Source: Eurosta solidaginis (taxonomy: Eukaryota > Arthropoda > Insecta > Diptera > Tephritidae). From it: a stretch of 64,000 nt of DNA. The number at the start of each line of letters is the position of its first letter. Position 1 is the first letter of the stretch. Position numbers and translations under genes: made by a program. The DNA is taken from positions 77,533,183 to 77,597,182 of the forward strand of contig NC_090321.1 of NCBI RefSeq assembly GCF_040869045.1, read 5' to 3'. The notes under the pieces were generated by a model. The model was not told the DNA's origin. It worked only from the letters and a program-made list of their open reading frames with translations, and ran no database searches. Of this stretch, positions 28,424 through 47,970 are shown piece by piece.

Positions 28424-28696
28424 TGGATCTGTTAGAATAATTTCTAATGATTTTAAAATTTTATTTCCAATATCTTTGAAATTTGTAATAATATAATGTT
28501 TGAATAAAGTAGGCCATTCAATTTGTTAAATTTTGCGTTTGCTGGCTTCTAATTCAAGCCTCGAAAGTAATTTTCATAAAGTCATTATTTCTTTAACAAA
28601 CTCAAAACTAAGTAACTCGAGCTTTTTATGTTTTATATGCGCAATAATTCCCAATTTTGTTGATTTATTATTTTTATCGTAAGTAAATTTCAGATC

Positions 28697-29293
28697 TTAT
28701 CCGTGGTACTTTTTTTTTGAAAGATTAAATGAAAGTTTGTCGTATACATGTAAAGTAAGTTGTTTTTCGTCGTTTTTGTCTGTTTTCCTAGGAAGGTTTT
28801 CATCGTCTTGCCGTTTTGTCATTGATCTTGTCTGTACTGCTAAAATTTTTTTGTTCGATTCCTTAATCTCATCGATAGTAATGCGCGGTAGTGCATCAGC
28901 ACCAACGTTTGATTTACCCTTAATATATACAATAGTAAAATTATATTCAGCTAGTTCCAGCCTTATTCTTGAAAGTTTTGAAGATGGGTCTTTCATATTG
29001 AAAAGGTATAATAGAGGTCTATGATCTGACTACAATAAAATGTGTGCCATAAACGTATGGTCGAAATTGCTTTATTGCGAAGTAAATAGCTAAGAGTTCC
29101 AATTCTATAATTGGTTTTTCTGCTCTGCTTTATTAAATGCTTTAGAAGCGTAACAAATTGGTAAATCACTACCTCGCTGTTCTTGACTCAAAATAGCGCC
29201 ACATCCAGTTGTTGAAGCATCAACGGTAATAATGAATTGTTTAGTAAAATCTGGATATTGAAGTAATTTTGGTGAAAGTAACGCTGCTTTCAC
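28697..29293 (-). pseudogene. 412-like RNase H and connection
   Basis: 29293-29105: FTKQFIITVDASTTGCGAIL (first catalytic Asp), SDLPICYASKAFNKAE; stop at 29105. The sense resumes at 28996-28697: LELAEYNFTIVYIKGKSNVG and ADALPRI (the usual ADALSR motif). A stop and frame changes separate the pieces. Confidence 0.82.
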
Positions 29294-29464
29294 AGATAAA
29301 AATGCCCTTTCGCACTCTACATCCCATACAAATTCAACTCTTTTTCTGCTAAATCGATTTAGAGGCGCTGCCAGAGACGCAAAATTAGGTATAAACCGTC
29401 TGTAATAGTTTGCGAACGCGACGAATCGTCGTACCGCGTCTTTGTCAGTCGGCTTTGTATACTT

Positions 29465-30000
29465 TTAAAATAAAATTTGTATACTTTTGGTTGCGTTTAT
29501 TTTGGAGTCGTCTGGCAACAAACCGTTGGCTGAACATTTGTAACCTAAAAATGTGACTTCTGGTCGTAAAAAGTTGCATTTATTTGGGTTAAGTTTGAGA
29601 TTGAAAGACCTACAAGTATTGAAAACTTTTGAAAGATTTTTAATATGGTGTGCTTCACTACAACCTATGACGATAATATCGTCGACGTACAAAAATGCGA
29701 CATTGGGTGGTATGCCCGAAAAAGCTATTGTCATCATTCGTGAGAATGAATTTGGTGCTATATTTAAACCGAATGGAAGCACTTTCCATCTAAATGCACC
29801 TCGGCCAGTGCTGAAAGAAGTAATGTCACGTGAGTCAGGATGCAAGGGGATTTGATGAAATCCCGAAAAAAGATCTAATGTGGAAAAATACTTTGCTCTA
29901 CCGAGATTGTGTAAAATATCGTCAACTCTAGCTAGTGGAAAGTTGTTTAAAGTCATTTTGTCCGTGTCAAGAGCGAAAATATCGGCATAATCTATGCAAA
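29465..30000 (-). pseudogene. 412-like reverse transcriptase with internal deletion
   Basis: FALDTDKMTLNN runs straight into FPLARVDDILHNLG, AKYFSTLDLFSGFHQIPL and on to FLYVDDIIVIGCSE. In the family, about 75 residues stand between these, including the first conserved RT blocks (the ..PYRL.. and ..RMCVDYRQLN.. regions). The palm YVDD motif is intact, but the deletion alone abolishes activity. Confidence 0.85.
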
Positions 30001-30041
30001 GGTCAATTTATGTTGAGTTATTTGGTTTTTTAAAATCGAAA

Positions 30042-30690
30042 TTAGTTGTTTCGTACGTGTGTCTTCTGTTTCTGTCTTGTTAATTGTATAAACATTATAA
30101 TTTGAAAGTTTTTCTGTCCGAAACTGTTTCTTTTCACATACTTTACATCATCCGTCGTGTTTATGACTTTAATTATTGGGTTACTGGAATTAACAACGCA
30201 TTTTTCAATTTCCTGCAAGTCCACGATAAGTGGCTCGGGTGAATCTCCTAAATCAAAAAGTCTGAAGATTTCACATCTTGGAGGAATGATACAACTGTCG
30301 CTTTCTGTTCCATGCAGGATTGGGATCGCGACTTTTTCATTACCTACCCAAAAGGAAATACTAATTCTTTCATAACTAATAATGCATTTGTTAATTTTCA
30401 AAAAATCTTTACCTAATATGCCATCGGATGGAATATTAAAGTCTTCATCTACTACATGTAAAGTATTTTTAAGAGAAAATTTTGAAAAATTTAAATTTAC
30501 GGTAATTTTATCTAAAGTGGAAACTGAATTAGAAGTAACACCGGCAATGTTAATAATGTCGTTTGTATTTGAGGAAATATTACTGTCTATACATGATATT
30601 TTTATTAAAGAAATGTCTGCTTGAGTGTCTACTAGGAAAGAACAAAATTTTTCTGACTCGTTAAGTTGTAATTCTATGAAATCTGAGTAA
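30042..30690 (-). pseudogene. 412-like protease and Pol N-terminus
   Basis: CSFLVDTQADISLIKISC is an aspartic-protease active-site block with the DTG/DTQA variant used in this group. It is followed by DEDFNIPSDGILGKDFLKIN, the second conserved flap (ILG.DFL), and a long Pol N-terminal region to about 30042. The next part is cut by stops before RT. Confidence 0.78.
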
Positions 30691-30733
30691 TTTAAATTTA
30701 AACAATAGATGCCTATTGGTAAGGGAAGTTCGC

Positions 30734-32041
30734 TTACTCGCTTAGTTCGTCCTCCCTCAGTGTTCGCTCCTGAGGGGCACTCGCGTTTAAAGCGCAGACG
30801 TTTGCATTTCTACCTCTACCGTTTGACGATCTAGAGTTGTTACCTCTATTGTTACTATTGTTTGAATTAGAATTTGTATTTGAACGCGTATTACTATTGT
30901 TATTATTTTGGTATCTATTTCTGTTATCATATCGATATCGCTGACTATTGTTACCGTTACGGTTGCTGTTGTATGCAAATGAACTATTGTTTCTATAACC
31001 AGTATAGCCGCGGTTTGGGTAAAAGCCACGGTAACTACCACGTGAATTTCTGAATGTATTGTTGCCACGCGATAGAAAAGCCAAAACCTGACGCTCTGTT
31101 ACTTCGTTGTTTTGTTCTACAGGTAATTTAGCTACTACGTCTTTCGGATCAGTAAATGCCGTTGAGGCTAAAATGGGTTTGACTAAATTGAATTTTGCGT
31201 TTAAACGACACACGTTAACGGTTTGTTCGACTGCCATTTCATGAGCTTTCGCTTGAGTGATCCCTTCAATAATAAGAGAATGCTCAAGTGAGTCAGCTAA
31301 ATCTTCAACTTTTTTGGCAAAATCTGTATAATTGTTGTTGTTAACGTACAACGCTGCAATTTTCCCTGCTACAACTTTCTAGTTGGCTGGTTTGATCCTA
31401 CTACGTAGAGCTAGTTTAATTTCATTAACTGAAGTTACTTGCGTTGGTATTGCTTCACGGGCTTTACCCTCTAGTTTTGATTTTAAAAATGCTATAAAGG
31501 TATTAGTTAGATCTTCAGTAGCGAACTGTTCAAGTAATTCACTTTTGTCTACAAAAGTCTCAAGTGCTAGAGGATCACCGCTGTAGTTTTCTCTAATAGA
31601 ATTAGCACATGTGTTAATGAAAGTTTTCTTTTCCTCAAGTGTTGCCATGATTTGATCATTGAGATCTGAAGCTGCATTAGAAGAAGGTGAGGCAACGTAT
31701 GTACTAATTGGATCGTTAAGATCTGGTTTTACATTAGAAGAAGTGGTAACTAAGTTAACACTATCTGAGTCGTTAAGATTTGATTTTAAAGTAGAAGAAG
31801 TTGAAGTTAATTTTGCACTATTTGAATCGTTAAGATTTGAAGCTAAATTAGAAGTTAAATTTTTACTAGAGGAATCTTCGAAGCCTGGGAAATCTGTTGA
31901 CAAAGATAATCTATTTTCCTGGTTTGTGACTTTTTCGGTCGAAGATGAATTTAAACTTTCGTAGCTTGAGGCTGAATTATAGGAATCGGATTCTGAATCT
32001 GAAGTTTTTTGCACTTGCTTACCACTTCTAAGGTTGTACAT
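30734..32041 (-). pseudogene. 412-like Gag, one nonsense break
   Basis: 32041-31379: MYNLRSGKQVQKTSD start, then a Ser/Asn/Leu-Asn-Asp repeat region with SNLNDSNSAKL, SNLNDSDSVNL, PDLNDPISTYV and SDLNDQI units. The capsid-like DKSELLEQFATEDLTNTFIA and LALRSRIKP follow. A stop and short gap follow; 31351-30734 continues with NNYTDFAKKVEDLADSLEHS and EQTVNVCR. The tail is Arg/Asn/Gly/Ser-rich (RGSYRGFYPNRGYTGYRNNS), a basic RNA-binding end in place of a CCHC knuckle. The four near-repeats of xLNDxxS are an odd local expansion. Confidence 0.85.
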
Positions 32042-32269
32042 ATGTAGTTATCAGAATAGCAAAATGAATTTAGTTTAAACTACTACGAAATTAATGAAGC
32101 ACTTATTTGGATGTGGGAATTTATAATTGAAGCTGAAATGTTGAGGAAAAAGAGAACAAAATTTTGGGAAAAGGGGATTGATTTACAGTGAATAGTCGCC
32201 AAAGAAATATTTAACAATTTATTGGAATGTATATAAGTATGAATTGGTAAAAATCTCAAAAATGTGTTA

Positions 32270-32510
32270 ATCACGGACGCACCGCTTTATTCAAAAAAAT
32301 CTTAATTGGCTTTTTGCAGAACCACCGCATATATCAAAAAAATGTTAATTGGTTTATAACGGAACCAGCGCATATATCAAAAAAGTTAATTGGTTTTTCA
32401 CGGAACCACCGCATATATCAAAAAAAATGTTAATTGGTTTTTAACGGAACCAACGCATATATCAAAAAAATGTTAATTGGTTTTTAACGGAACCACCGCA
32501 TGTATTAAAA
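32270..32510. repeat. 43-bp tandem repeat in the retrotransposon leader
   Basis: Five units of 41-44 bp, each with GGAACCANCGCATATATC and a TTAATTGGTTT block; CGCAT recurs at 32326, 32369, 32410, 32454 and 32497. The GGACGCACCG motif before it recurs at 32940 and 46896, so the leader carries a family of related repeats. Confidence 0.85.
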
Positions 32511-33000
32511 AAATCCAAAATTTACACGTTACATGCAAACTGCTTATCTAGCTCAACAGTCTTATATGGTTAAAATTAATATTATGTTGGAAAATGGGCG
32601 TATAAATAAAAAAAATTTTTTTTTCTTTTACCTGAAGTAAAAATTTTAAAAATGGAAAATCCGAAATTTGAAATTTTAAATAGAAGGTTTGTGAAATGAA
32701 TTGTAAATTTGAAGAATGGAAGCTTGAAAATATGTGAATTTGTAAAATAAATTGATGAATTTTTAATTTAGAATTTTGAAAACATGAAAAATTTTAAGAA
32801 ATTGTAAATTTGGGAAATGAATTTAAAAATTTGAGAAAAAATGAAAATTGCAGACTTGAAAATGTTGATATTTATAAAATGGTTTGGAAATTTTAAAAAT
32901 TGTTGAAAACTGAGGAAGTATTAGTGGTTCAGTTTAGACGGACGCACCGTTTTGGTAAAAATCCAAATCCGTTGTAATCAAAAAAAATCCAAAATATTTT
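32511..33000. other. AT-rich retrotransposon leader
   Basis: Mostly A/T with AAATTTTGAAAA-like words; ends in GGACGCACCG and TATTTT, which with 46896 onward recreates a continuous leader if the P-like insertion is removed. Confidence 0.5.
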
Positions 33001-34180
33001 ATACGAACCATGGTACAATTACCAGGTAGAAGCATTAGCGAAAATGCAACCCTCCCGTGTATTTTGTTGTTGCCGCTCGAACATAAACTGTCAATCCGTC
33101 TTTCAATTTCTACTGTCAAAAGTGATGTATGAAGAGATATGACACTATTTTTTCCGTCAAAAACAAAAAACAAACAACATGCTGGGAAAAAAGAAAATCA
33201 ACTAATAAATGTTGATTTTCGGATAAACAGACTTATTTAACGCAAAAGAAAGGTAATGAGCTGTTTCTTTATTCTTAGTCTTGTTTTATTCACTTTTTGT
33301 CATTTTGCAGATACAGATGAATTTGTGCAAAAATTCGAAGAGAATGAAAATGAGTTGCAAGCAATTTGTGACCAAACGACAGCAGCTAAGCAAGTTAGTG
33401 AGCCAATGGAGCCAGAATCGGATGGGACATTAGTTTTATTTGAAGAGCCTGCTGCAAGCGCGCTCAGATAACAGTACTAGGCTGTTAGCAAATGCATCCA
33501 AAACCCCATTTTTGAAGCGCAGCACCTCTGACGTGCTCAATTCAAATGAGCCGCCCACAGGTGGAATGGCGAAAAATATCAGTAGCACCACAATGACTAT
33601 TAATGCAGCTACACACGCGCAAACATTGACTTCAAATATAAGTAGCACAACATTTGCTATTGGTCCAGCACCTATAATCACAGTTGCCTCCGCTGCAGTT
33701 ACAAAATAGAAGCGTAAATGTTTGCATTTGCGTTCTTTTTATCGCCCACATACCTTACATCCTTTTTTCTTACTTTGCAGCGCTCACTGAGGCACAACGC
33801 AACAAGATGCGCGTACTTGCACACGAATATGGCACATTTAGCTCAAGTGGCAATACTAAAATCATTCGACCTGATATAAGATCACACATCTGACCACAGA
33901 TCTGATCAATGCCAATGTACCGGCGCCGTTAAATAGGAAGACAGTTTTAAAAATTAATGTAGAGTTAGCAAACGAGCAACAAAAAGAAGAGCATGTGCAA
34001 CAAGCTGCAGACCGTTTGTTAATGTGACAAATTGCAGACGCGCATGATTATTTAATAACCCCCGATTGCGCTTTTAACACCGCCGGCTTGCAGGCCAAGC
34101 AACATGGCTTCAATTTTGTAGACGCTGAGCGTCTAAAGAAGCAGCAGCAATTAGCTCTGCTAGAGGCGCCTATACAACCT

Positions 34181-35379
34181 GTGAGGACCAAATAAAACAC
34201 CATTAATTTGGCCCACACAAAACGACCCCACAACATATTCAACACAGCTTTAACACAACAGCCAGTCACAAAAGGCCCTAGCAACACGACAAACCAACAA
34301 GTCTCAGCAACACGACTAGCAATAACAACACTTAATAGCAACACAACAAACTAACAATTCTCAGCAACACAACGAGCGTTCGCAACATTTAATAGCAACA
34401 CGGTAACCATGGCAACGCAACCATTTGAGCTAGCAACACCAAACACAACAGCTATAAAAGGAACGACACAGCAGTTAGCACGGAGCTGTGGTCGTGACCG
34501 GAGCTACCAGTGGAGCGTCCCTCGAATGTGTCGGTTATACCACCAGGAGAAGTCGTTTCGTAGGAGTGAGTCGTGGCCTCAAGTGGTGAATGTGTCGGTT
34601 ATACCACCAAACACCGCATGAGACTTCGTAAGCAACGGCCCTACCGCAGTAACGCGCACCCGCGAACAGGCGACGTCCGCCCGCCTGCGACGACGCTGGC
34701 CGCAATAGCGAACACACTACGTTGGCTCCAGCACTACGCCAGCATACGACGCGGGCCACAACAGCGCTACGTAAACACACTACGCTGGCCGCAACAGCAC
34801 TACGAAAACGTACTACGTTGGCCACAGCAGTCACGATAACCTACGACGCTGACCGCAACAGCGCTACGCAACCGCACTACGCTAACATACCACGCTGGCC
34901 GCAACAACGCTACACAAACACACTACGCTGGCTGCCACGGCACTACGCAAACATACCACGTGAACCACAGCAGAGTCCGCTAACCTACGACGCTGGCCGC
35001 AACAGCGCTAAGCAGGCATACTACGTTGACCGCAGCAGAGTTACACAAATACATGACGTCAACCATACTAGAGTTACACACACGCACGCAGACGCACCGA
35101 CATAAGCCGCAGTAGAGACAGCGCAGTCGCTAGTCGTACGAGAGACACGCCGACGCAGGGCGTCACAGAAATACATTTACACACACCCAGGCAACGACCT
35201 GCAAAACGTCCTAACGGGACGATCCTAACGGGACACGAGGACCGTTGGCCCACCACTAACCATAGAAGAAGCACAAAGCGAAGTGAAGAATACAAATACA
35301 TCTTTATTTTATTACATTATTTTCATTATAGTTATAAAATATATAGAGTTAAAGAAATAAAGTGAATTTTATATGAAAA
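34181..35379. other. GC-rich insert with 36-39 bp tandem repeats (possible solo LTR)
   Basis: Interrupts the pseudogene between PIQPVRT and LQGVPNYKF. It has a TATA motif (GCTATAAAAGGA at 34450) and repeats of ACGCTGGCCGCAACAGCGCT through 34680-35060, and ends AT-rich with AATAAAGTG. The left edge GTGAGG could be a donor and TTTGCAAG an acceptor, but the phases disagree, so this is either an LTR-like insertion or a swollen intron. Frames on both strands come from the tandem repeat. Confidence 0.5.
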
Positions 35380-36391
35380 CGATTTGCAAGGTGTCCCGAA
35401 TTACAAATTTGTTGTAAGTGAACCTTGGACACGGCGAGTATACCCCAAGCACTTATTGAAGAAGCACCGGGGCAGGAAAAAGCTTCGTTACAAACCATAT
35501 ACATTATCGGTCACCTCTTCTAATACAGAGGAGGAGGAAGAGGTCGCGATACCTTTGCAGGACTACAGCGATCCGTATAAACGTAGTCAAGAGTTGCTTG
35601 ATAGTAATTTTACCTGTTCAACACACAGGCCATACATACGTTTGAATATGTCGCACACACCAATGATTGTTGCAGCAATGATATCACGCGAATCTTTACA
35701 ACAACTGAAAGTGAATAGCATAAGCGTTATAACGCTCACGGAATTTCTGCAAAAATCTGTAATACTACCGATGACTACACATTTGGGTTTGGTTAACAAT
35801 GAGGTGATGCGCCTGTTTCTCGAAGAACTGCGAATACTTGACCATTTGCGTAGTTTGAGACATTATTTCTTTTTGATGGATGGCGAGTTTGGTTCGATTA
35901 TATGTGATGGCATGATTGGCAAGCTGGAGATTGGAGCAACGCCTGCCAAGCTGCTTAATTATCAAATGTTGCACTCGGGCTCAAGCATAACAGGTAAGCA
36001 AATGTGATGCCATGTCGCAAAGAACGAACTAATGGCTATTCAGAATGAAAGGCCTAAAAACTGCAAAATATTATCAAAGATAAAAAGCAAAAAAAAAGAT
36101 ACAGATATAAAGAAGTTCGAAGTGCACTGAAAAAAAGTACTCGCAGCATAGCAAAAAAAAAATCATATTCATTCATTCCTATTTGTCACTCTTTTATTAA
36201 AGAGCGGAATGTTAATACAACTACAACAACAACAGGTTAAAAATGGAAAGTTTTAGTATGGGTCAGACATTTTTTGTTGTGTTCAAAGATCTTAAGTATA
36301 CACAAGAAGAAAATCAAATATGCCCCTTAAGATATGCAACGTCTTTTTGTTATGCTTATGAAAATGTTGAATATTTGATATTTCTACTACT

Positions 36392-37112
36392 AGGTTAGGT
36401 TAAAGTGGCTGCCTCCGCTGTCCGAGCGGAGACTCACGTAGGCCGTTGTGGCGCGTTGTGCTACCACGCGGGGGCCCCTATTTCCTGTTACCCTACTTTC
36501 GAAGAAGAAGAAAGTTTAGACCCCAGTGAGGCTAAACCAGCGCGTTTGTCTGATGAAACGCAAGATGTCGTTTGGGTTTGTAGATTCAAGCTCCGCAAGG
36601 CACCCAAAGTAGTGTCTGTGGAGGCATTGGTACCTGGTTTTTGACAGTGCGGGACAGTGGCACAGATAGTGCTCTACGCTTTCTATCTCCTCTTCATCCC
36701 TACAGCTGCGGCAGAAGTCATTTGTCTGTAGGCCCATATAGGCACCGTCAGTGCCCATGAGACAGTGACCTGTGAGAAGGCCCACTAGTAGGCTTATGGA
36801 GATACGGTTTAACAATATCACCGATTGCGATCTCTTTTCATCCAGCTTAGGCCTGATTTGCTTGGATATACTACATGTAGGTTCCTTGGCCCATCTGGCG
36901 TTTGCTTGATCCATGAAAAGAGATCGTAGGCAGTGTTTGCAAGTGTTTAGAGGAGGGCTGGCCCAACCAGCGGAGGTTATTGTTTGCAGGTTGGTGCCTT
37001 CCCTAGCTAGCTCATCCGCGGCGCAGTTTCCTGAGATGTCACAGTGGCCAGGAACCCATATTACCATATTTATGCTACTAATATTTTTCGAAAAATGGCA
37101 AAGAAACAACAC
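36392..37112 (-). pseudogene. LOA-type LINE 3' end in an intron of the captured gene
   Basis: Minus-strand 5'-truncated LINE: MVIWVPGHCDISGNCAADEL with the RNase H C-terminal block, SLLVGLLTGHCLMGTDGAYM, FCRSCRDEEEIESVEHYLCH, CPALSKTR and RFIRQTRWF. It ends in AACCTAACCTAG at 36392. The 198-residue frame is open. It lies between intact splice sites of the pseudogene intron. Confidence 0.85.
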
Positions 37113-38067
37113 ATATAACGGATGTCAATTCGATTTGGGAGCAAAATGGCTGCAATTGTCAAAAAATGTGTCAGTCGAGCAAACCTCTTGTGATTGAATC
37201 ATGATGATGTTCTATATTAATAGATTTTCAAAACTTTCAGGCAACGATAAAAACGGTGAAAATCTCTCATTCACCATCAGCGATGTATCTTTGAAATTTT
37301 ATCTCAGCAGTCCGGGCGTATTAAATGTACTCAGCTTCAGTTATCGCATCGAATGGCCTCTAAATCTTATACTCACTCCTGAGACACTCGAACAATATGG
37401 CAACATTTTCAAATATCTGATTAAAGTGCGCCGAATTAGTTGGGTGCTAGAGCGCGCTTATCAAATCCTTAAGGAGGCTGTGAAAAAACAAGGCAAAGCC
37501 ATACTCAAATAACCACAGTATCGCCATATTCAACTGATGCGTCATAAATTCTATCATTTTGAACATGCGCTACAAAATCACATCACAGCAAATGCATTGC
37601 AAGCATCATGGAAGACCTTCAAAGATGATTTATTACAAGCGAAGTCAATTGAAAATATTTATCGCAAGCATGCCACGTATCTGAAAAGGATACTCTTTCT
37701 TTGCATGCTAAATCGTCATACCGCAGAGTTTTATAATACTATTGAAAATATATTTAAAATATCGTTACGGTTTTACAAGTAAGTTATCAGTACAAAAGTT
37801 TATAATTTTTCTTTTATAATTTACACATTTCTTTTATTTCTCAAAGTAATCTAAAGTCACGCGAATTTAAGAAACGCAGCGGCGATGAGCGAAAAACTAT
37901 CCAATGATGAACAAAAATTTGATAAATTTATCAAATTTACAATTTATCTAGGTAACAAAATTGTACGTCATGGTTATCAGGAGGAGATTGGCCAATTCAT
38001 TGCCTTAATTAATTTTAGTCAGTACTATAGCGCGAGCACAATCGTTTAGAGCTTAAAAAAAAAAAAA

Positions 38068-40475
38068 AACAAGTAAGGAAGGTTAAGTTCGGGTGTAACC
38101 GAACATTACATACTCAGTTGAGAGCTATGGTGACAACATAAGGGAAAATAACCATGTAGGAAAATGAACCGAGGGTAACCCTGGAACGTGTTTGTATGAC
38201 ATGTGTATCAAATGAAAAAGGTATTAAAGAGTATTTTGTGAGGGAGTGTGCCATAGTTCTATAGGTGGACGCCATTTAGGGATATCGCCATAAAGGTGGA
38301 TCAGGGTTGACTCTAGAATTTGTTTGTACGATATGGGTATCAAATGAAAGGTGTTAATGAGCATTTTAAAAGGGAGTGGGCCTTAGTTCTATGGGTGGAC
38401 GCCTTTTCGAGATATCGCCATAAAGGTGAACCAGGGGTGACTCTAGAACGCGTTTGTACAATATGGGTATAAAACGAAAGGTGTTAATGAGTATTTCAAA
38501 AGGGCGCGCGGCTTAGTTCTATAGGTGGACGCCTTTTCGAGATATCGCCATAAAAATGGACCAGGGGTGACTCTAGAATGTGTTTGTACGATATGGGTAT
38601 CACATTAAAGGTATTAATGAGGGTTTTAAAAGGGAGGTTGTATAGGTGGTCGCCTTTTCGAGATATCGGCATAAAGGTGGAGCAGGTGTGACTCTAGAAT
38701 GCGTTTGTACAATATGGGTATCAAACGAAAGGTGTTAATGAGTATTTTAAAAGAAAGTGGGCCTTAGTTCTATAGGTGGACGCCTTTTCGAGATATCGCC
38801 ATAAAGGTGGACCAGGGGTGACTCTAGAATATGTTTGTACGATATGGGTATCACATTAAAGGTATTAATGAGGGTTTTAAAAGGGAGTGGGCCGTAGTTC
38901 TATGGGTGGACGCATTTTCGAGATATCGCAATAAAGGTGGACCAGGGGTGACTATAGAATATGTTTGTACGATATGGGTATCAAATGAAAGGTGTTAATG
39001 AGTATTTTTAAAGGGCGTGGGGCTTAGTTCAATAGGTGGACGTCTTTTCGAGATATCGCCATAAAGGTGGACCAGGGGTGACTCTAGAATATGTTTGTAC
39101 GATATGGGTATCAAATTAAAGGTATTAATGAGGCTTTTAAAAGGGAGTGGTGGTAGTTGTATATGTGAAGGCGTTTTCCAGAGACGAGCAAAATGTGGAC
39201 GAGGGTGACCCAGAACATCGTCTGTTGGATACCGCTAATTTATTTATATATATAATACCACGAACAGTATTCCTGCCAAGATTTCAAGTGTTTTTTTTTC
39301 TCCCTGCAGAACTTTTTCATTTTATTCTACTTAATATGGAAGGTGTCACAGCCATTTTACAAAGTTTTTTTCTAAAGTTATATTTTGCGTCAATAAACCA
39401 ATGCAATTACCATGTTTCATCCCCTTTTTCGTATTTGGTATAGAATTATGGCATTTTTTCATTTTTCGTAATTTTCGATATCGAAAAAGTGGGCGTGGTG
39501 ATAGTCGGATTTCGGCCATTTTGTATACCAATACAAAATGAGTTCAGATAAGTACGTGAACTGAGTTTAGTAAAGATATATCGATTTTTGCTCAACGGTC
39601 GACTGTGTATAAAAAATGGGCGTAGCTTCAACCGATTTCGCCCTTTTTCATAGAAATAAGTTATGGTCCCAGAATCTAAACCCGTACCAAATTTCACAAG
39701 GATTGGTAAATGTTCGACTTATGGCATTAAAAGTATCCTAGACAAATTAAATGAAAAAGGGCGGAGCCACGCCTATTTTGAAATTTTCTTTTATTTTTGC
39801 ATTTTGTTGCACCGTATCATTACTGGAGTTGAATATTGACATAATTTACTTATATACTGTAAAGATATTAATTTTTTTGTTAAAATTTTACTTACTGGTC
39901 GTTCTCCGATTTTGCAAATTTTTATTAAGCATACATATATTAGTAGGAGTAACGTTCCTGCCAAATTTCATTATGATATCTTCAACGACTGCCAAATTAC
40001 AGCTTGCAAAAGTTTTAAAATTACCTTCTTTTAAAAGTGGGCGGTACCACGCCCATTGTCCAAAATTTTACTAATTTTCTATCCTGCGTCATAAGTTCAA
40101 CTCACCTACCAAGTTTCATCGCTTTATCCGTCTTTGATAATGAATTATCGCACTTTTTCGGTTTTTCGAAATTTTCGATATCGAAAAAGTGGGCGTGGTT
40201 ATAGTCCGATATTGTTCATTTTAAATAGCGATCTGAGATGAGTGCTCAAGAACCTACATACCAAATTTCATCAAGATACCTCAAAATTTACTCAAGTTAT
40301 CGTGTTAACGGATGGACGGACGGACGGACATGGCTCAATCAAATTTTTTTTCGATCCTGATGATTTTGATATATAGAAAACTATATCTATCTCGATTCCT
40401 TTATACCTGTACAACCAACCGTTATCCAATCAAAGTTAATATACTCTGTGAGCTCTGCTCAACTGAGTATAATAA
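38068..40475. mobile_element. Non-autonomous dispersed element, family Z, copy 1
   Basis: Begins CAAGTAAGGAAGGTTAAGTT then CGGGTGTAACCGAACATTAC and ends TGCTCAACTGAGTATAA; the ends contain an inverted ACTCAGTTGAG / CTCAACTGAGT. The interior holds the 130-bp array, then four or more AAAGTGGGCG-type blocks and GGACGGACGGACATGGCTC near the end. Copy 2 (49688-56822) has the same start, the same GGACGGACGG block and an equivalent end. No coding is supported. Confidence 0.7.
38170..39180. repeat. 130-bp tandem array inside family Z
   Basis: About eight units. The anchor ACTCTAGAA recurs at 38310, 38440, 38570, 38691, 38821, 38951 (ACTATAGAA) and 39081, giving 130 bp throughout except one 121-bp unit. 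Each unit has TTTGTACGATATGGGTATCA, GGTGTTAATGAG, TTAGTTCTATAGGTGGACGC and TTTTCGAGATATCGCCATAA. Confidence 0.93.
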
Positions 40476-40736
40476 ATAGTACAAAATGTTTATTTTAAAT
40501 GTCTCAAATGTAAGCGCTGAATTTACTTTTTAAAAACTCGAATTTTTAATGTTACTATGTATGTGTATATTGTTGTCTATACAATATGTTTGTATGTATA
40601 TGTATACATGTAAAAAATAAAGGGAAAGTATAGTTTTGTGATTTACTAATCACTATTAATATAATTTAATGTAATTCAATTGTTCAGTTCACAATAAAAT
40701 GGTTTTAGTTATAATATTGATTTAATTTTAACACAT

Positions 40737-41053
40737 TAATTTAGCATATTAATTGAAAATAGATATTTGATTCAGCTTTGTTTCACACGGCTTGACTGAT
40801 GTTAACAACGGATTTCTTGACAACCGACGGCGCGCAACTTGACTTTAAGACTGGTTTGTTAGGCCCACTGCTACTTGAAAAAAAAAACGACTGTATCAAC
40901 TGCTTGTAGGTACAACGGATCAACTGAGAGAGTAAAGGCGACTGGAAGTCATATGTACTACTTATTGTTGTAAACTAAACGGAGCAGCATTGAGTGGTTG
41001 TTGTTGGCTACTGTGGTTGGCGACTGTTGTTAGCTAATGACCACTGTTTACAT
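40737..41053 (-). repeat. 3' LTR of gypsy element 2
   Basis: Plus-strand TAATTTAGCATATTAATTG..ACTGTTTACAT. The Gag-Pol stop codon (ATG TAA) lies on its minus-strand start, so coding runs right up to the LTR. Confidence 0.78.
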
Positions 41054-44000
41054 TCGGCCATTCTGATCTTCGTCATCTGACCCATCTGACATCAATTCTT
41101 CCGAGTTACAAACATAGCGCCACAATTTCATATTGTCAGCGGATGTTGATGTCTCAAATGGACCTTCGCAATTTTCAGCTTTTTTCACATCATACCGGTC
41201 GTTACGTTTAACCTTTGTGACAACGTAGGGTCCAAGAAATTCGCTAGCCAATTTTTTGCCAGCTACAAATTGGGTACGTTTGATTGCTACAACGTCGTTT
41301 ACTTTGTATATAGGTGCATTTTTTCGTTGCTTATCGTAGTTTTTCTTATATTGAGCTTGGGCTTTAAGGATTTGCTGCTTCACGTCACGGCGTAGATTTT
41401 GCCGTTCATCTTCAAACCCATCGATCAGCTCATTGCGTAATATATCCAGCACCCTGTTACTAATATCACCCCTCATCTTCACTCCAAACATGATCTGGAA
41501 TGGTGAACGTTTTGTTGATGAGTGCACATGAGAATTAATGGCTTTTTGTACTAGCCCGACGTATTTGTACCATTTCGCAGGCTCGTCAGTTGATAGTTTT
41601 GACAACACCTGCAGAACGGATCGGTTGACGCGCTCAACCTGGCCATTGCCACGAGCGACACCTGTAGTGATAGTAACATGAGTGATTCCATTTTTCTTAC
41701 AGAAATCGTTGAAGTTATTGGAGGTAAAACCCGAACCCTTATCGCTGATTATTCGTGCTGGATTGCCAAATACGGTTGTCCATTCATTCATCCTACGTAT
41801 TACCTCTTCAGCATTCGTCGTCTTTGTTGGAAAAAGCCATGTAAATTTGCAAAATGCATCCACAAGAACTAGGATGTATTTGTATTGCTTTGCCGTGGCG
41901 TCCATTGGCCCGAGGTGGTCTATGTGCAGCGTTTCGAGCGGTTGATCTCCCTTTTCAATGCAGTTCAATAAGCATTCTTTTTTACCCAGCTTTTTATTGT
42001 GTACTATGCACTTTACACAATTGTCTATGCAACGTCTTACTTTATTTTGCAAATGTGGTATAAAATAGTTTTGCTGTATAGCGTGTACTGTTTTTAGTTC
42101 GGCGAAATGACCAACGTTATGTGCATCACGAATTATGTCAGCTTCTAACGATCTGGGCACCACTAATAATTCGTGTCCATCTACTGATTTGAATAATAAA
42201 TCGCCTTTTACTATGTAATTTTGGTATTGCTTAGTTTTGAGTATTTCGCGCACTGCTATCAAGTGCTCATCTTCTTTTTGGGCTTTTCTTATACGTGTGG
42301 TAACATCTGACATAACAACAAATATATCTACAACTGGGTTACGACTAAGGCTGTCGACATGCCTCATTTTTGGCGCTATACGGTGTTCAACTTTAAATCT
42401 GAAGTCTTGGAAATTCATAATCCATTGCGCAACTTCTCTCGGAATATTTTTTTTCGACGTGGTGCTTTTAAAAGCGGAGCAATCTGTGATTAGTGTGAAG
42501 TCTACTCCAAGTAAGTAGTGCCGAAACTTTTGCATTGCGAGATGAGCTGCTTTTACTTCTAACACATAGCTGTGTAGCCTAGACTCTTGCGGTGTTGTTT
42601 TTTTGCTCCAGAAGTATACGGGATGCAGTTCACCCTCGAAAACTTGCATCAAGGCTGCACCAAAACCCTCTTTGGAAGCATCAGTATGTAACTCTGTTCT
42701 CGCGTTTCTATCGTACAACTTGAGCACTGGTTCTTCTGCTAGCTTCTTTTTGAGTTCATTAATCGCCGCAAGCTCGACTTGGCCTAATTTGAAAGTACTG
42801 TCTTTTTTCAGCAAATCGGTAAGTGGACGTGCTATTATGGAATAATCTTCCACAAACTTTCTAAAAAAGCCGGTCAAGCCCAGAAATGATTGTATGTCTT
42901 TGACGTTCTTGGGCGTTGGAAACTGCTGTACCGCCCTCGTTTTCTCACTGCCAGGTCGCACTGTCCCACTTTCGATTACGTGGCCCAGAAAATTAATTTT
43001 TGTTTGCATAAACGCACATTTTTGCCACTTTATTTTAAGGCCGTATTCAGAAGCTTTAATTATCACTTTTTGCAGCTTTTTCGTACATTCGTCTGCCGTA
43101 ACACCGAAGATAATTATATCGTCCATATATAGCTGCATAACACCTTCATTCACCATATCTTGAAAAATGTAATTTATGTACCGTATAAAAACGGCTGGCG
43201 AATTACAAAAACCAAAAGGTGCATAATTAAATTCAAATACGCCTTCTTTAGTAACAAACCCGGTATATTTTTTGGCAGATTCTTTAATTGGGACATGGAA
43301 AAACCCATTTTCCAGGTCCATTACACAAAAATATTTAGCTTTTTGTAATTTCTCTAAAACATCGTCTATTATTGGTAGTGGAAAAGAGTCTTTAAGCACC
43401 ATCGAGTTTAGTTTTCTAAAATCGATACAAACACGATATGAACCATCCTTTTTTTTCACAACTACCACTCTACTTGCAAATTCAGAGGTAGAGTGCCTAA
43501 CAATACCTTGTTCTAGCCACTGATCAACTTGTTTCCTCACCGCCTCTTGCTCTTCAAATGGAAGCCGACTTGGCGATTGGCGAAAGGGTCTAATATTATC
43601 ACCAATAATGTCCATCGCAATAGGGCATTCGCGATCACCTTTTATTGGTTTATAAAGTTTAATAATTTCCACGATTGCGTCTTTAAAACAAACTGGTACT
43701 ACGAGATCGTGCTGATATTCACTTATATTATACACTTTCAATTCGTTTTCAAAGGTTTCATCAGTAAGCTTACTGAAATTATAACCACTTTTATCAAAGA
43801 CAACCTTGAATCTGTTTAGGAAGTCAAAACCAAGTAAAATGTCAAATTTTATATTCTTGTCACACACTACCAAAAAGGTTTGCTCACAGCTCAAATTATC
43901 AACAACAACATTACAGCAGCAACTGCCTTCAACTTTGTTTGATACATTACCAAGTCCACAAAGTAATTTGTCGGATTCTTTTAACAAAATGTTTGACAAG

Positions 44001-44641
44001 AATTTTTCATAAAAACTTTTTCTTATAATTGATACGTCGGACCCCGTGTCGACTAAGGACTTCGCCTCGGTACCGTTTATGGTAATATATTTAAAACGGT
44101 TACAAACAGATATAACATTAACATCTTTATTTTGATTTTTAGCAGGGCAAACTTTCGCGTGGTGGCCACTTTTGTTACAATTAAAACACTTCATAGGCTC
44201 CTTACACGCTGGCCTTTTGTGCTCTGTAGAGCCACAGTTGAAGCAGTGTTCTTTTTTCGACGTATTATTATTATTTTTATTATTTCTCACAACCGGCTGA
44301 TCACTTTTAAATGCATAGTCAAATGTTTCATGACGTTCAATTAATTCTTTCACAGTTTTGCAATTATATAATACAAATTTTATTTCGGGTTTAACGCGTA
44401 ACCCATTAACAGCATAGAGGATTACCGATGCATCATCAACTGACCCAAGTGATGCCAACTTTTTAACACGCAGAACATACTCATGGAAATTTTCATCACT
44501 ATGTTTTTTCATTTCTCTTAGTTCTTTATGCAATTCCGCACTTGTATAGTCTTTATGAAATTCGTCAATTAATTTTTCACGTAAGCTAACGTAGTTATTG
44601 ACGCAAACCGACTCTAAAAATAATTGAGCCTGTTTTATCAT
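41048..44641 (-). CDS. Gag-Pol polyprotein of gypsy element 2 (1197 residues, N-terminally truncated)
   Basis: One uninterrupted frame. Residues ~1-110: C-terminal capsid (LREKLIDEFHKDYTSAELHK). ~130-165: two CCHC knuckles, CFNCGSTEHKRPAC and CFNCNKSGHHAKVC. ~195: protease LVDTGSDVSII. ~380-530: RT with YRVCIDFRKLN and YMDDIIIFG. ~640: RNase H HTDASKEGFGAAL. ~850: integrase zinc region with AHNVGHFAEL and CIDNCVKC. ~910-1010: integrase core, LHIDHLGPMD (Asp), IISDKGSGFT (Asp), GNGQVERVNR (Glu). C-terminus: basic, YKVNDVVAIKRTQFVAGKKL and FLGPYVVTKVKRNDRYDVKK. All catalytic residues are present. The ATG used is internal to gag, so the natural start is lost. Confidence 0.9.
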   Translation of the reverse strand: MIKQAQLFLESVCVNNYVSLREKLIDEFHKDYTSAELHKELREMKKHSDENFHEYVLRVKKLASLGSVDDASVILYAVNGLRVKPEIKFVLYNCKTVKELIERHETFDYAFKSDQPVVRNNKNNNNTSKKEHCFNCGSTEHKRPACKEPMKCFNCNKSGHHAKVCPAKNQNKDVNVISVCNRFKYITINGTEAKSLVDTGSDVSIIRKSFYEKFLSNILLKESDKLLCGLGNVSNKVEGSCCCNVVVDNLSCEQTFLVVCDKNIKFDILLGFDFLNRFKVVFDKSGYNFSKLTDETFENELKVYNISEYQHDLVVPVCFKDAIVEIIKLYKPIKGDRECPIAMDIIGDNIRPFRQSPSRLPFEEQEAVRKQVDQWLEQGIVRHSTSEFASRVVVVKKKDGSYRVCIDFRKLNSMVLKDSFPLPIIDDVLEKLQKAKYFCVMDLENGFFHVPIKESAKKYTGFVTKEGVFEFNYAPFGFCNSPAVFIRYINYIFQDMVNEGVMQLYMDDIIIFGVTADECTKKLQKVIIKASEYGLKIKWQKCAFMQTKINFLGHVIESGTVRPGSEKTRAVQQFPTPKNVKDIQSFLGLTGFFRKFVEDYSIIARPLTDLLKKDSTFKLGQVELAAINELKKKLAEEPVLKLYDRNARTELHTDASKEGFGAALMQVFEGELHPVYFWSKKTTPQESRLHSYVLEVKAAHLAMQKFRHYLLGVDFTLITDCSAFKSTTSKKNIPREVAQWIMNFQDFRFKVEHRIAPKMRHVDSLSRNPVVDIFVVMSDVTTRIRKAQKEDEHLIAVREILKTKQYQNYIVKGDLLFKSVDGHELLVVPRSLEADIIRDAHNVGHFAELKTVHAIQQNYFIPHLQNKVRRCIDNCVKCIVHNKKLGKKECLLNCIEKGDQPLETLHIDHLGPMDATAKQYKYILVLVDAFCKFTWLFPTKTTNAEEVIRRMNEWTTVFGNPARIISDKGSGFTSNNFNDFCKKNGITHVTITTGVARGNGQVERVNRSVLQVLSKLSTDEPAKWYKYVGLVQKAINSHVHSSTKRSPFQIMFGVKMRGDISNRVLDILRNELIDGFEDERQNLRRDVKQQILKAQAQYKKNYDKQRKNAPIYKVNDVVAIKRTQFVAGKKLASEFLGPYVVTKVKRNDRYDVKKAENCEGPFETSTSADNMKLWRYVCNSEELMSDGSDDEDQNGRM

Positions 44642-44672
44642 TTTTCCGCGCGCTTATTATCATTTTTCCGCG

Positions 44673-44984
44673 AGCATATTAATTGAAAATAGATATTTGA
44701 TTCAGCTTTGTTTCACACGGCTTGACTGATGTTAACAACGGATTTCTTGACAACCGACGGCGCGCAACTTGACTTTAAGACTGGTTTGTTAGGCCCACTG
44801 CTACTTGAAAAAAAAAAACGACTGTATCAACTGCTTGTAGGTACAACGGATCAACTGAGAGAGTAAAGGCGACTGGAAGTCATATGTACTACTTATTGTT
44901 GTAAACTAAATGGAGCAGCATTGAGTGGTTGTTGTTGGCTACTGTGGTTGGCGACTGTTGTTAGCTAATGACCACTGTTTACAT
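44673..44984 (-). repeat. 5' LTR of gypsy element 2 (inner end clipped)
   Basis: Same as 40743-41053 with one C/T difference (TAAACTAAACGG against TAAACTAAATGG) and one extra A in a run. It is adjacent to the deletion scar. Confidence 0.8.
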
Positions 44985-45434
44985 ACATATATCTAATTTT
45001 ACTATTCATTAATATAAATGCGTTGAATTATGGTAAATGGTGCTTGTTACCGGGTCTATATGCGGTCATAATTTCATTTCACAGAAAGAAATTTTACTGT
45101 ATTAATTCGTAAAATGTTTGAAAAAACTGCGAAATATGAAATTTTCACAACAAATCAAATTCGTCTTTGCTCTAACAACCAGGAGGCTTTTGTATCAATT
45201 TCGGTTTTAGGCCGGATCTGGTATCGGTACCTGCTATGGCAAAAGTTCGGTTTGGAGTGTTTCCGTATCGGTTATACTCCGGTTTTGTTTTCTTGTCATC
45301 CCCTTTTTTTCTATGTACTGCCCTGAAAATAACCATAATTTTAATAATATGGAGGATATAAATAATCCCAAAGTAAATTTATAATATGTAAAACATAATT
45401 GTCCAGCAAATTTTTCTCTTGGTATACTGTTTGT
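44985..45434. other. Unassigned sequence within the P-like element
   Basis: No supported gene. It lies downstream of the third histone-type stem-loop in minus-strand terms. Confidence 0.4.
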
Positions 45435-45585
45435 GGCTCTGATAAGGGCCGTTTTGCGTACGTATAATTGATTAGCAATTTTTTCTCTTTGTTGATTAGT
45501 GGTGGCCCTGATAAGGGCCGTTTTTCGTATACTTGTATAGCATATTTTTGCTCTTTGTAAAATTATGGTGGCCCTGAAAAGGATC
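45435..45585 (-). promoter_or_regulatory. Three tandem histone-type 3' stem-loops with downstream purine elements
   Basis: On the minus strand: GATCCTTTTCAGGGCC (45585-45570), GGCCCTTATCAGGGCC (45519-45504) and GGCCCTTATCAGAGCC (45450-45435). Each has 6-base arms around a UNNC loop (the second perfect, the others with one or two imperfect pairs), is preceded by AAAAC or AAAAAC and followed by ACCA or ACAA. About 15 nt on comes CAAAGAG or CCAAGAGA. That is the complete layout of a replication-dependent histone pre-mRNA end: SLBP-binding stem-loop and U7-type downstream element. Spacing is 66 and 69 bp. No histone coding lies nearby; the upstream minus-strand gene is an acidic non-histone protein. 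Confidence 0.8.
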
Positions 45586-45599
45586 GTTTTTCGTATCGT

Positions 45600-46815
45600 C
45601 AGGGTTGTGCTGAAATATAGATATAATTTTTATTTGATTTCTCTTCATGCTCCACTTTGAGCGTGGATATATATTGAGATACGAATTGCTCCGTCTTTGC
45701 TTTGGTAATGCCTTTAGCAATGAAACTTTCGGTTGCACTAATAAGACAGTGGACTTTATTACTTCACCGTTTTTGTAGCTGTTTGTGTTAGCCTTTGATA
45801 TTATATTCTCTTGATTACTTTCATCGTTGCTGCTGCTAACAACTTCTATTATTTTTTCTTTAACGCTAATTACCTGCACATCACTTTCATCAGACGAATC
45901 GATTTGGGTACGATATTCTTGTACTGGACTTGCTTGATATATAGTTGAAGTTAATTTTTCTTTATAGCCTTTTCAAATTGCATACTATACCGAGCAGAGC
46001 TGAGCGGTGAATCGGTAGTTGCGATCATTGGTTAAGCGGTTGTTTATTCGGTGTGCTAACTACAACGGGTTTTATAGGTTTTCCAGTTTGGTTTGTTTCT
46101 TCTACATCACTCGCAGCACTATTATCAATAAAGCTCCTACTACTTTCTGCATCACCAACCGAACTTCTACCAGTTGCTTCAGATGCAGATTGTTCCAAAA
46201 ATGCATTTTTATTTTTTTTCAACCTTCTTGGATTCATGTCTGCTATCAACACGCATTGTGCTTTGTTCTCGCACTGTAGTAACTTGACTTTTTCTGGAAC
46301 TTTCTTCTACCTCTGGACGTGCATCCGAGTATTATATTTCACTTGAATCTGATAGATCCGATGGCCTTATTCCTGTGATACTCATACGCGTACGCGGTGA
46401 AAGCGCCTGTCTGTCAGATTCGTCATCTTCCTCTTCATCAGAATTATCGGATGATCTTAAGCCCGTAATACTCATACGGGTGCGCGAAGATAAAGCGTGT
46501 TTGTCAGTTTCATCCTCACCTGACGTAGTAATAACTCGTCGATTTCTGTTTTCAGCACTATTGTGTTTGCGGACCACAAAGCTTTCATCCGAGCATGTAG
46601 CAACAACAAGAATTAATTTTATGTGTGTAATATATAAAATGAAAAGTTTTATTTACTTCATTGCCGGACTCTTCAATTACCAGCTCGCCACTCGGTAACT
46701 CTCCATCTGCAAAACAAAAGAATGCATAACCAACCACGTTTATTAACCGTACAATTTTCTTACCTGCACCAAAATAAAATAAACAAAAAAAGTAAACATA
46801 AACTAAGTTTGACAT
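45600..46815 (-). pseudogene. Captured fragment of an acidic Ser-rich nuclear-type protein gene
   Basis: Reads inward from the right end of the P-like element. Exon-like part 46706-46657 (DGELPSGELVIEESGNE) with CAG before and GTAAAT after; then 46577-46332 (SFVVRKHNSAENRNRRVITT.., with two near-repeats SSRTRMSITGLRSSDNSDEE and SPRTRMSITGIRPSDLSD). 46252-46025 (FLEQSASEATGRSSVGDAES) and 45960-45600 (SSDESDVQVISVKEKIIEVV) follow after stops or frameshifts. Low complexity with acidic serine clusters and basic patches suggests a nuclear regulatory or chromatin protein N-terminus. I cannot name the gene. Intron traces again point to DNA-level capture. Confidence 0.55.
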
Positions 46816-46895
46816 TTTATGATCAGCTTCGAATGAAAAAACATGTAAAATGCAACTCTGATGCTTTTACCTGGTTATTGTACCATGATACGAAC

Positions 46896-47570
46896 GGACG
46901 CACCGTTGTATTCAAAAATAAAAAAAATTATAATATTTAATGTGGACGCACTGCACTTAATAAAAATTGTAAATTTTTTTGTATACATATATGAAAAAAA
47001 ACCCGTAGGAAAAATTTTATTAATAAATACATATATCATATACTTATTTTTTTCTTCTTCACTGCTGCTATGATGATGATGCCGCTGTTGTTAATGCTGC
47101 TGCTAGCCTTGTTGTAGCAATGCTAGCCTTCGCTGCCGACGGTGATTGCTGCTACTGGGCTTTGCTGTTGATGGCGTTCGTTGCTGCTGACGTTCGCTGC
47201 CGATGGCGGTGGTACAGTTTACGATCCTGTTATCTGAGTGGCGTGGGTTTTGAATGCCGCTATTTAATTGGCGTGAATTTTTATATGCCGATATTATGTA
47301 TATTATAATTAAATGATTTATGTTATCTTTTGATCTTTTTAATTTAAAACTTTGTAGTTCGTAGAATTTAGTTCTTTATGTTATTTCCGTAGTGTTTAGT
47401 TTTTAGATAATTTGTTGTATTAGGAAATAGTATTTTGTAGATTTTTGTTATTTCGCATTTTAAAATTGTATATTTTTATTATTTCCGCATTTTCAGTTTT
47501 TAGAAAATTGTTGTATTAAGTTTAATAATTTTCCACACCGCACGCACTCACTCACCTGTACCACCAAAGA
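46896..47570. other. Retrotransposon leader, 5' part
   Basis: Starts GGACGCACCGTTGTATTC, a unit shared with 32274 and 32940, and runs through (GCT/GCC)-rich words at 47060-47210 to the primer site. No coding is supported. Confidence 0.5.
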
Positions 47571-47585
47571 CCATCACGGTCGCCA
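47571..47585 (-). promoter_or_regulatory. Primer-binding site, tRNA-Arg type
   Basis: TGGCGACCGTGATGG on the minus strand, directly after the ...TTTACA end of the 5' LTR. 412 and mdg1 elements are known to use a tRNA-Arg-type site beginning TGGCGACCG. Confidence 0.75.
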
Positions 47586-47970
47586 TGTAAACTAACCATA
47601 TAGGTTAGGTTGCTCTCACCTGCCCAAACATCCATCTTGGAGGGCACCGCCTCCAAACGGTTGCCCTTTTGTCAATTAAAATGTTCGGCGTGGGGTTTCT
47701 GCACCACGCATTCATCCAGAAAAACAAAGCTTGTGTTTTACTTTTTAAACAGTCACTTTTATTCAGGAAAACTAACTGAAGCACGTCCGTCTGCTTCTTG
47801 TGCAAAATTTTATTGTTGAGTTATGTACATCATTTTTTATGTAAGTGATGTGGGCCGCAGTTGTATTTGACATGCGCGTTGCCACCTGTACGCGCCTGTC
47901 AAATACAACTTAAGACCCAACCACATAGAATACCTTATTATATTTTTGTGTAAGGCTTATGTTCCTTATA
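47586..47970 (-). repeat. 5' LTR of the 412-like element
   Basis: 385 bp, partner of 26562-26944 with about a dozen differences by eye, such as CCACCTTGGGGGGCGCC against CCATCTTGGAGGGCACC. It is followed by TSD AACG. Confidence 0.88.

What the first reader, a model, noticed from the sequence alone, without database searches (positions are those of the whole stretch)
33001..46895. P-like inverted-repeat element that captured host genes by a DNA route
Seen: inverted ends matching at 28 of 32 bases and starting CATGGTACAAT, with perfect 8-bp ATACGAAC duplications. No transposase lies inside. A gamma-tubulin complex gene starts near one end and an unknown gene near the other, both reading inward and both with intron traces. 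Known: P elements make 8-bp duplications and begin CATGATGAAATAAC; Pack-type gene capture is best known from plant MULE, CACTA and hAT elements. Inferred: a Pack-like P-superfamily element in a fly. The P transposase remnant at 17-20 kb shows that the superfamily was present in this genome.
Basis: partly seen in the sequence, partly recalled or inferred. Interest (0 to 1): 0.88.

Follow-up and report, generated by a model that had tools for sequence, protein, structure and literature searches.

The report
Fly P element carrying host genes
In a gall fly's genome, a jumping gene of the P-element family has picked up pieces of two ordinary cell-division genes from two different chromosomes, and relatives with the same ends carry a piece of a third gene, so insects too have transposons that collect host genes.

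Summary
In detail: inverted ends (28/32), perfect 8-bp ATACGAAC duplications, 13,879 bp between. The element sits in the leader of an LTR retrotransposon.

Left cargo is the second half of GCP6 (codons 833 to stop), not a gene start. Right cargo is TTF2/lodestar (codons ~24-363). Both are broken copies with introns kept. The parents lie on two chromosomes (C4, C1), the element on a third (C3).

CATGGTACAAT occurs 1,165 times in the genome (control 443). I looked at 16 inverted pairs of this word: 14 share the window's longer ends at both termini; 13 have perfect 8-bp duplications, two 9-bp. Fourteen carry pieces of NFS1 (cysteine desulfurase). One of these also carries P-transposase domains (THAP, RNase H C-terminal, Tnp_P_element_C; PDB 6p5a E=9e-22).

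So this is a true P-element family with exchanged host cargo: a Pack-type system in an insect. Inferred: ectopic gap repair at a P element, then transposition of the gene-bearing copy (divergence 3.5% per lineage against 1.6% for the host retrotransposon, p=0.011). Copy number of the GCP6/TTF2 version could not be tested; the genome search answered once.

The parts
33001..33008 (.). target site duplication ATACGAAC, left
33009..33040 (+). left terminal inverted repeat, 28/32 to the right one; 10/14 to the P-element head CATGATGAAATAAC
33009..33269 (+). left transposon end shared with other copies (first ~170 bp at 85-88% in most), with a presumed first exon and a splice donor AAAG|GTAATKAGCTG at 33253 conserved in 10 of 16 left ends read
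33270..38052 (+). captured GCP6 tract, codons 833-1626 of the Eurosta protein, introns kept, codons 1021-1107 deleted, in-frame stops at 33707, 34025 and 37510, frame changes; 1.3-kb insertion at 34180-35490
36519..37124 (-). non-LTR RNase H-like fragment inside a GCP6 intron (RNase_H E=0.012, below the family's cut-off)
38067..40480 (.). high-copy repeat with a 130-bp tandem array, just after the GCP6 stop codon
40743..44984 (-). nested LTR retrotransposon, LTRs 99.4% identical (young)
45066..45637 (.). transposon interior shared with other copies (45066-45393 at 92.8% to L039, 45085-45393 at 94% to L054, up to 45637 at 78% to L054), including a 66-bp minisatellite
45638..46766 (-). captured TTF2/lodestar tract, codons ~24-338, weaker matches to 336-363 and 416-429; intron 46763-46707 kept, stop at 46334-46332, frame changes
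46767..46887 (-). right transposon end shared with other copies (91-95% over 109-121 bp in most); in L054 the transposase reads inward from this end
46888..46895 (.). target site duplication ATACGAAC, right
26562..47970 (-). LTR retrotransposon interrupted by the element: LTRs 26562-26944 and 47586-47970 (96.4%), 4-bp duplication AACG, reverse transcriptase, protease and integrase zinc-binding pieces
16000..21400 (-). remnant of another, distant P-like transposase (TNP-like GTP-binding, RNase H C-terminal and weak THAP matches), with a non-LTR element on the other strand in between

Best explanation
Shown: the element is a gene-carrying member of a P-element family in the window's genome, taken to be Eurosta solidaginis. 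Its ends are those of a family whose copies hold different host genes (NFS1 in 14 of 16 examined; GCP6 plus TTF2 here) and, in one examined copy, P-transposase domains. The cargo was copied from genomic DNA, since introns are kept, and its two parts come from two chromosomes. Inferred: after excision or breakage of a P copy, the two broken ends were repaired by copying ectopic templates. The left side copied GCP6 from inside an intron and the right side copied TTF2 from the end of an exon; the TTF2 side joins back to the old interior at 45637/45638. The gene-bearing copy was later moved by P transposase in trans into the leader of an LTR retrotransposon. The left end supplies a first exon and splice donor, so chimeric transcripts are possible, but both gene pieces are too broken to make the parental proteins.
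For: TIR and 8-bp TSD. Insertion inside an LTR retrotransposon with its own 4-bp TSD. GCP6 and TTF2 identity with Eurosta as best hit. Parents on contigs of 279,015,510 and 396,922,850 bp, the lengths of C4 and C1 of the window's own assembly, while the window lies on C3. The two genes also have different contig lengths in 6 of 6 other fly species with large contigs in both lists. Introns splice to the parental protein. Of 16 pairs chosen by the terminal 11-mer, 14 match the longer window ends at both termini and 13 have perfect 8-bp TSDs. NFS1 pieces in 14 of 16. P transposase domains in L054. Copy-only substitutions give 3.5% per lineage (CI 2.5-4.8) against 1.57% for the outer LTRs, p=0.011, so capture probably predates this insertion.
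Against: Only one copy with GCP6/TTF2 was seen, and its copy number was never tested (genome search answered once). L054 shows no match to the central GTP-binding domain in the frames scanned, so it may be internally deleted; no complete transposase was shown. The 10-bp transposase-binding and 11-bp subterminal repeats described for Drosophila P were not found. Three of 16 pairs lack a perfect 8-bp TSD (two have 9 bp, one is imperfect). Two of 16 (C1:34669128 and C1:106454535) match the family at one terminus only (TIR 18/32 and 19/32) although their 8-bp TSDs are perfect. The pairs share the first 11 bases by choice. Pfam did not find NFS1 in the L037 or L045 frames scanned; the NFS1 call rests on PDB similarity and on tblastn between copies. 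The age test compares amino-acid with LTR changes and is only moderately strong (GCP6 alone p=0.021, TTF2 alone p=0.067); LTR gene conversion would bias it.
Confidence: 0.88

Rival explanations
1. In situ gap filling: an ordinary copy of the family inserted into the retrotransposon, and only there was its interior broken and refilled with GCP6 and TTF2. The gene-bearing version itself never moved.
For: PMC8277862 (passages and section 7) finds that most single-copy animal Pack-TIRs arise without transposition. The TTF2 tract is bounded by family sequence on both sides, as gap filling would leave it. Only one GCP6/TTF2 copy is known.
Against: The captured tracts look about twice as old as the host retrotransposon insertion (3.5% against 1.57% per lineage, p=0.011). 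NFS1-bearing relatives do move, with distinct TSDs.
Confidence: 0.15
2. Macrotransposition: two P copies next to the two genes became joined by a chromosomal rearrangement, and the outer ends then moved everything between them.
For: Macrotransposition is proposed for a composite P-MITE in PMC1562414 (passages). Both genes read inward from the ends. Two pairs with perfect TSDs but only one family end hint that unusual ends can be used.
Against: The parents are on different chromosomes. The ends are only about 260 and 121 bp of transposon, family interior lies beside TTF2, and both genes are truncated at internal points.
Confidence: 0.07
3. A host segment framed by chance repeats, or an assembly artefact.
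For: None found.
Against: TIR and TSD statistics, nested position in an LTR element, 14 of 16 other pairs with the same longer ends.
Confidence: 0.01

Closest known systems
P element of Drosophila and P families of Anopheles (PMC7776569, PMC1562414, PMC4004357; passages only)
   Same: TIRs of about 31 bp, 8-bp TSD, head CATG...AATAAC (10-11 of 14 bases), THAP-type P transposase domains in a copy with the same ends, many internally changed copies.
   Different: Copies carry host genes with introns; 28/32 rather than perfect TIRs; the Drosophila subterminal repeats were not found; central transposase domain not detected in L054.
Pack-TIRs of animals (PMC8277862; abstract, passages and section 7)
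   Same: Host sequence between DNA-transposon ends, copied at the DNA level, mobilised copies with distinct TSDs.
   Different: That survey of 100 animal genomes found none in insect reference genomes and one fly family (Ssk-FB4) in populations. Median captured length there was 224 bp, and 87% were hAT or TcMariner. Here the family is P, the GCP6 and TTF2 tracts span about 4.8 and 1.1 kb of the window, one element holds two genes from two chromosomes, and one family carries three host genes.
Pack-MULE / Pack-TYPE elements of plants (PMC8903248, search listing and start of abstract only)
   Same: Non-autonomous TIR elements that capture and shuffle coding DNA.
   Different: Plant hosts; the superfamilies were not checked here.
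P-MITEs (PMC1562414) and Galileo (PMC4168063); passages only
   Same: P-superfamily derivatives. P-MITEs have P ends around unrelated interiors, with ectopic gap repair discussed; for Galileo, defective copies are ascribed to aborted repair, slippage or template switching.
   Different: No host genes reported in the passages seen.

Membership tests
P element | Terminal inverted repeats near 31 bp | tested here: met
   28/32 in the window; 26-29/32 in L039-L047, 28/32 in L053 and L054, 19/32 without gaps in L052 and 18/32 in twin1, 19/32 in the C1:106454535 pair
P element | 8-bp target site duplication | tested here: met
   14 of 17 elements including the window; 9 bp in 2, imperfect in 1
P element | P transposase encoded by a copy with the same ends | tested here: met
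   L054: THAP 3e-8, TNP-like_RNaseH_C 1.1e-6, Tnp_P_element_C 6.2e-5; PDB 6p5a 9.1e-22. Partial THAP matches in 12 further copies
P element | Complete, autonomous transposase gene | tested here: inconclusive
   No GTP-binding domain match in L054 + frames; the rest of the genome was not searched
[quoted passage not shown]
   The subterminal words shared by the two ends lie in opposite orientation; by my estimate they are near chance
Pack-TIR / Pack-type element | Host sequence between TIRs with an identified parental gene elsewhere | tested here: met
   GCP6 on the contig of 279,015,510 bp, TTF2 on the contig of 396,922,850 bp
Pack-TIR / Pack-type element | DNA-level capture (introns kept) | tested here: met
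   Four introns splice to the parental proteins; NFS1 intron in L037
Pack-TIR / Pack-type element | Parental locus without flanking TIR element | not tested
   Parental loci could not be located; the genome search did not complete
Pack-TIR / Pack-type element | Several copies moved as a unit | tested here: inconclusive
   Shown for NFS1-bearing copies with distinct TSDs; not testable for the GCP6/TTF2 version

The most novel reading that the evidence does not exclude
A P-element family in a living insect acts as a gene-shuffling platform. Its left end carries a first exon with a conserved splice donor and its right end the transposase's 5' region, so newly captured exons can be transcribed as chimeras at either end. 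Cargo has been exchanged repeatedly (NFS1, GCP6, TTF2, possibly a fourth ORF), including on a transposase-bearing copy.
Probability: 0.35. Interest if true: 0.9.

Novelty: new variant of a known kind. Interest (0 to 1): 0.8.

Why it matters
P elements are among the best-studied animal transposons, and their gap repair is textbook knowledge (recalled). Yet a published survey found no Pack-type elements in insect reference genomes (PMC8277862). A P family with three captured host genes, kilobase tracts, retained introns and a transposase-bearing relative would show that P elements shuffle genes in nature. With 1,165 occurrences of its terminal word in one assembly (443 for the control word), it offers a large set for testing how gene capture works.

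Tried and rejected
Rejected: retrogene capture (introns kept); a single contiguous host segment (parents on different chromosomes); the Rfam Histone3 hit as a gene feature (45478-45524 falls in the family's 66-bp minisatellite); the window's own P remnant as the source (distant; no DNA match to L052-L054 or twin1 among the rows shown, a listing that was cut). Led nowhere: paper search for the terminal letters (76 papers hold either word, 20 listed, none about transposons by title); viral-contig scan for the ends (none); Pfam on + frames of L040, L042 and L045 and on ten frames of L037/L038 (nothing, so Pfam missed the NFS1 and THAP remnants there); subterminal repeat search. A pair 14.0 kb apart on C1 (106454535), close to the window element in size, was checked for GCP6 and TTF2 in its outer 4 kb at each end: none. 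The paper searches showed no P element with captured host genes among the titles and abstract starts listed.

Not done: copy number of the GCP6 and TTF2 tracts, parental loci, genome-wide transposase search, empty sites elsewhere.
Full report
What was claimed and what is there. The sequence confirms it: TIRs at 33009 and 46887 match at 28 of 32 bases and are flanked by perfect ATACGAAC copies. In 12 Markov surrogates no comparable inverted pair appeared. In the real window two further inverted offsets have identical flanking octamers, but they lie inside a long inverted repeat at 25379-26268 / 49862-50705.

Where it sits. The element interrupts an LTR retrotransposon on the minus strand: LTRs 26562-26944 and 47586-47970 are 96.4% identical, the outer duplication is AACG on both sides, and a reverse transcriptase, a protease and an integrase zinc-binding piece lie between. 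The insertion lies between the 5' LTR and the first long ORF. The element in turn holds a younger LTR retrotransposon (40743-44984, LTRs 99.4%) and a high-copy repeat with a 130-bp array (38067-40480) that recurs in at least 8 of 20 sampled 10-kb stretches, one of them weakly (the listing was cut).

What it carries. The left cargo matches GCP6 (PDB 9eoj, E=5e-48) and best of all GCP6 of Eurosta solidaginis. It covers codons 833 to the stop, with codons 1021-1107 missing, in-frame stops at 33707, 34025 and 37510 and several frame changes. The right cargo matches TTF2/lodestar of Eurosta, codons about 24-338, with weaker matches to 336-363 and 416-429, a stop at 46334-46332 and frame changes. 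Introns at 33714-33780, 35994-37240, 37779-37846 and 46763-46707 splice to the parental residues (K-P-L-T, T-G-N, F-Y-N-N-L-K, G-A-D-G-E) as I read the junctions. The route was therefore DNA. A second TTF2 intron near 46656-46600 and the 1.3-kb insertion at 34180-35490 show no clean splice sites.

Which genome, and where the parents are. The window lies at C3:77533183-77597182 of its assembly. C1 has 396,922,850 bp, the contig length given for Eurosta TTF2, and C4 has 279,015,510 bp, that of Eurosta GCP6. I take the assembly to be Eurosta solidaginis. The two parents thus lie on two chromosomes and the element on a third. In six other flies present in both lists with large contigs (Bactrocera neohumeralis, Zeugodacus cucurbitae, Cochliomyia hominivorax, Haematobia irritans, Musca autumnalis, Lucilia cuprina) the two genes also have different contig lengths. 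These are cluster-level values, and the Lucilia GCP6 entry is a weaker, partial match, so they are supporting evidence only. Musca vetustissima was left out because its contigs are short.

Relatives with the same ends. The 11-mer CATGGTACAAT occurs 589 times forward and 576 times reverse in the genome, against 235 and 208 for the reversed control word (the first 100 places were listed, all on C1). From that listing I chose by eye 16 inverted pairs 2.4-14 kb apart, so they are not a random sample and share the first 11 bases by choice; several palindromic pairs a few tens of bases apart and unpaired sites were not followed. The 16 are L037/L038, L039-L047, L052, L053, L054, twin1 (L048+L049), twin2 (L050, L051, outer 960 bp only) and C1:106454535 (L055, L056, outer 4 kb only). 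Fourteen match the window's longer ends at both termini; twin1 and C1:106454535 do so at one terminus only. Thirteen have perfect 8-bp duplications, two have 9-bp ones (C1:7499624 and L053), one (L044) is imperfect. Where matched, identity is mostly 85-88% over 130-170 bp on the left and 91-95% over 109-121 bp on the right; L039, L041 and L052 match over shorter or broken stretches. A 66-bp minisatellite and neighbouring interior at 45066-45637 recur in other copies. Of the eight loci, L031-L035 carry the 11-mer without the longer ends.

Their cargo. Twelve of the 16 hold the C-terminal part of mitochondrial cysteine desulfurase NFS1 (PDB 5kz5, E=1.1e-32 for joined pieces of L037), with an intron kept in L037; in L046 only the first piece matched. 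L039 and L054 hold a middle part (Aminotran_5, E=1e-8 in L039; 98% alike between the two), making 14 of 16. In twin2 and C1:106454535 no NFS1 was found in the parts fetched. GCP6 or TTF2 was found in none of the parts searched (the middle 584 bp of the C1:7499624 element were not fetched).

The transposase. L054 (C1:129929763-129935152, 5,390 bp, TSD GTGTGGCA) encodes a THAP domain (3e-8), a TNP-like RNase H C-terminal piece (1.1e-6) and Tnp_P_element_C (6.2e-5); its C-terminal pieces match the P transposase structure 6p5a at 9.1e-22. No GTP-binding domain was seen in these frames, so this copy may be defective. Twelve further copies keep partial THAP matches. The window's ends also resemble the Drosophila P head (10 and 11 of 14; head sequence from PMC4004357; 10 of 63,986 plus-strand 14-mers of the window reach 11). 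The family is therefore P proper by transposase, duplication length and ends.

Time order. At 422 residues invariant in five other tephritids, the GCP6 copy alone changed 31, the Eurosta gene alone 5, and 11 changes are shared; for TTF2 (129 residues, three outgroups) the numbers are 9, 5 and 16. Four positions with X were dropped. This gives about 3.5% per lineage (2.5-4.8) against 1.57% for the outer LTRs (p=0.011; GCP6 alone 0.021, TTF2 alone 0.067) and 0.32% for the inner LTRs. Read plainly, capture came first, then insertion into the retrotransposon, then the inner insertion. The test assumes the copy was unconstrained from the start and that LTRs did not convert each other.

How it most likely works. 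Shown: P ends, host DNA, two unlinked sources, family interior directly beside the TTF2 tract, related copies with other cargo. Inferred: ectopic gap repair at each side of a broken P copy, as discussed for P-MITEs and Galileo (PMC1562414, PMC4168063, passages) and modelled for animal Pack-TIRs (PMC8277862, abstract, passages and section 7), followed by transposition with P transposase supplied in trans. The left end carries a presumed first exon and the donor AAAG|GTAATKAGCTG, found in 10 of the 16 left ends read including the window. In the window it stands 58 bp before an acceptor-like site at the first GCP6 exon. Chimeric transcripts are possible but untested.

Novelty. Pack-TIRs are known in animals. 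The survey read here found none in insect reference genomes and one fly family in populations. My paper searches showed no P element with captured host genes among the titles and abstract starts listed, within an open-licence library only. I rate it a new variant of a known kind.

NFS1 was recounted from 13 of 15 to 14 of 16, because L054 also holds a piece and a sixteenth pair was fetched. The claim that all pairs share the window's ends became 14 of 16 at both termini.

Noticed in passing
L039:525-857 and L054:4614-4946 (minus): An unidentified 111-aa ORF (GKRDLLAELYSDLSPKYIGF...) lies next to the NFS1 piece in two copies; no Pfam match for the L054 version. It may be a fourth captured gene or a part of the P family.
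   Followed up: partly
L015:1875-1892 and 7119-7136 (minus): The variant end CATGGTGGAATAACCAGG occurs twice in one sampled 10-kb stretch, each beside different sequence; it may mark a sister family.
   Followed up: partly
C1:34669128-34681087 (L048+L049) and C1:106454535-106468530 (L055, L056): Two long units (11,960 and 13,996 bp) have perfect 8-bp duplications, but one terminus matches the family only over about its first 15 bases; alternative ends may have carried off longer stretches. The first holds a whole 3.6-kb NFS1-type copy.
   Followed up: partly
window 45478-45524 (minus): Rfam Histone3 stem-loop hit just above threshold (34.4 against 34 bits); it falls in the family's 66-bp minisatellite with a palindromic GGCCCTTATCAGGGCC core and is probably spurious.
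   Followed up: yes
window 25379-26268 and 49862-50705: An inverted repeat pair of about 0.85 kb (82-90% identical) flanks the nested stack of elements.
   Followed up: no
L034 and L035: Two loci 7.6 kb apart are 99.9% identical and contain the terminal 11-mer between or beside 268-bp inverted arms that match the flank of the C1:7499624 copy.
   Followed up: no
window 33041-33050 and 46847-46856: AAAATGCAAC lies just inside or at the edge of both TIRs in the same direction on the + strand, unlike the TIRs themselves; near chance level by my estimate, unexplained.
   Followed up: partly
window 6-4807: A long array of tandem units, about 100 bp among other periods, rich in ATCCCGAAA.
   Followed up: no
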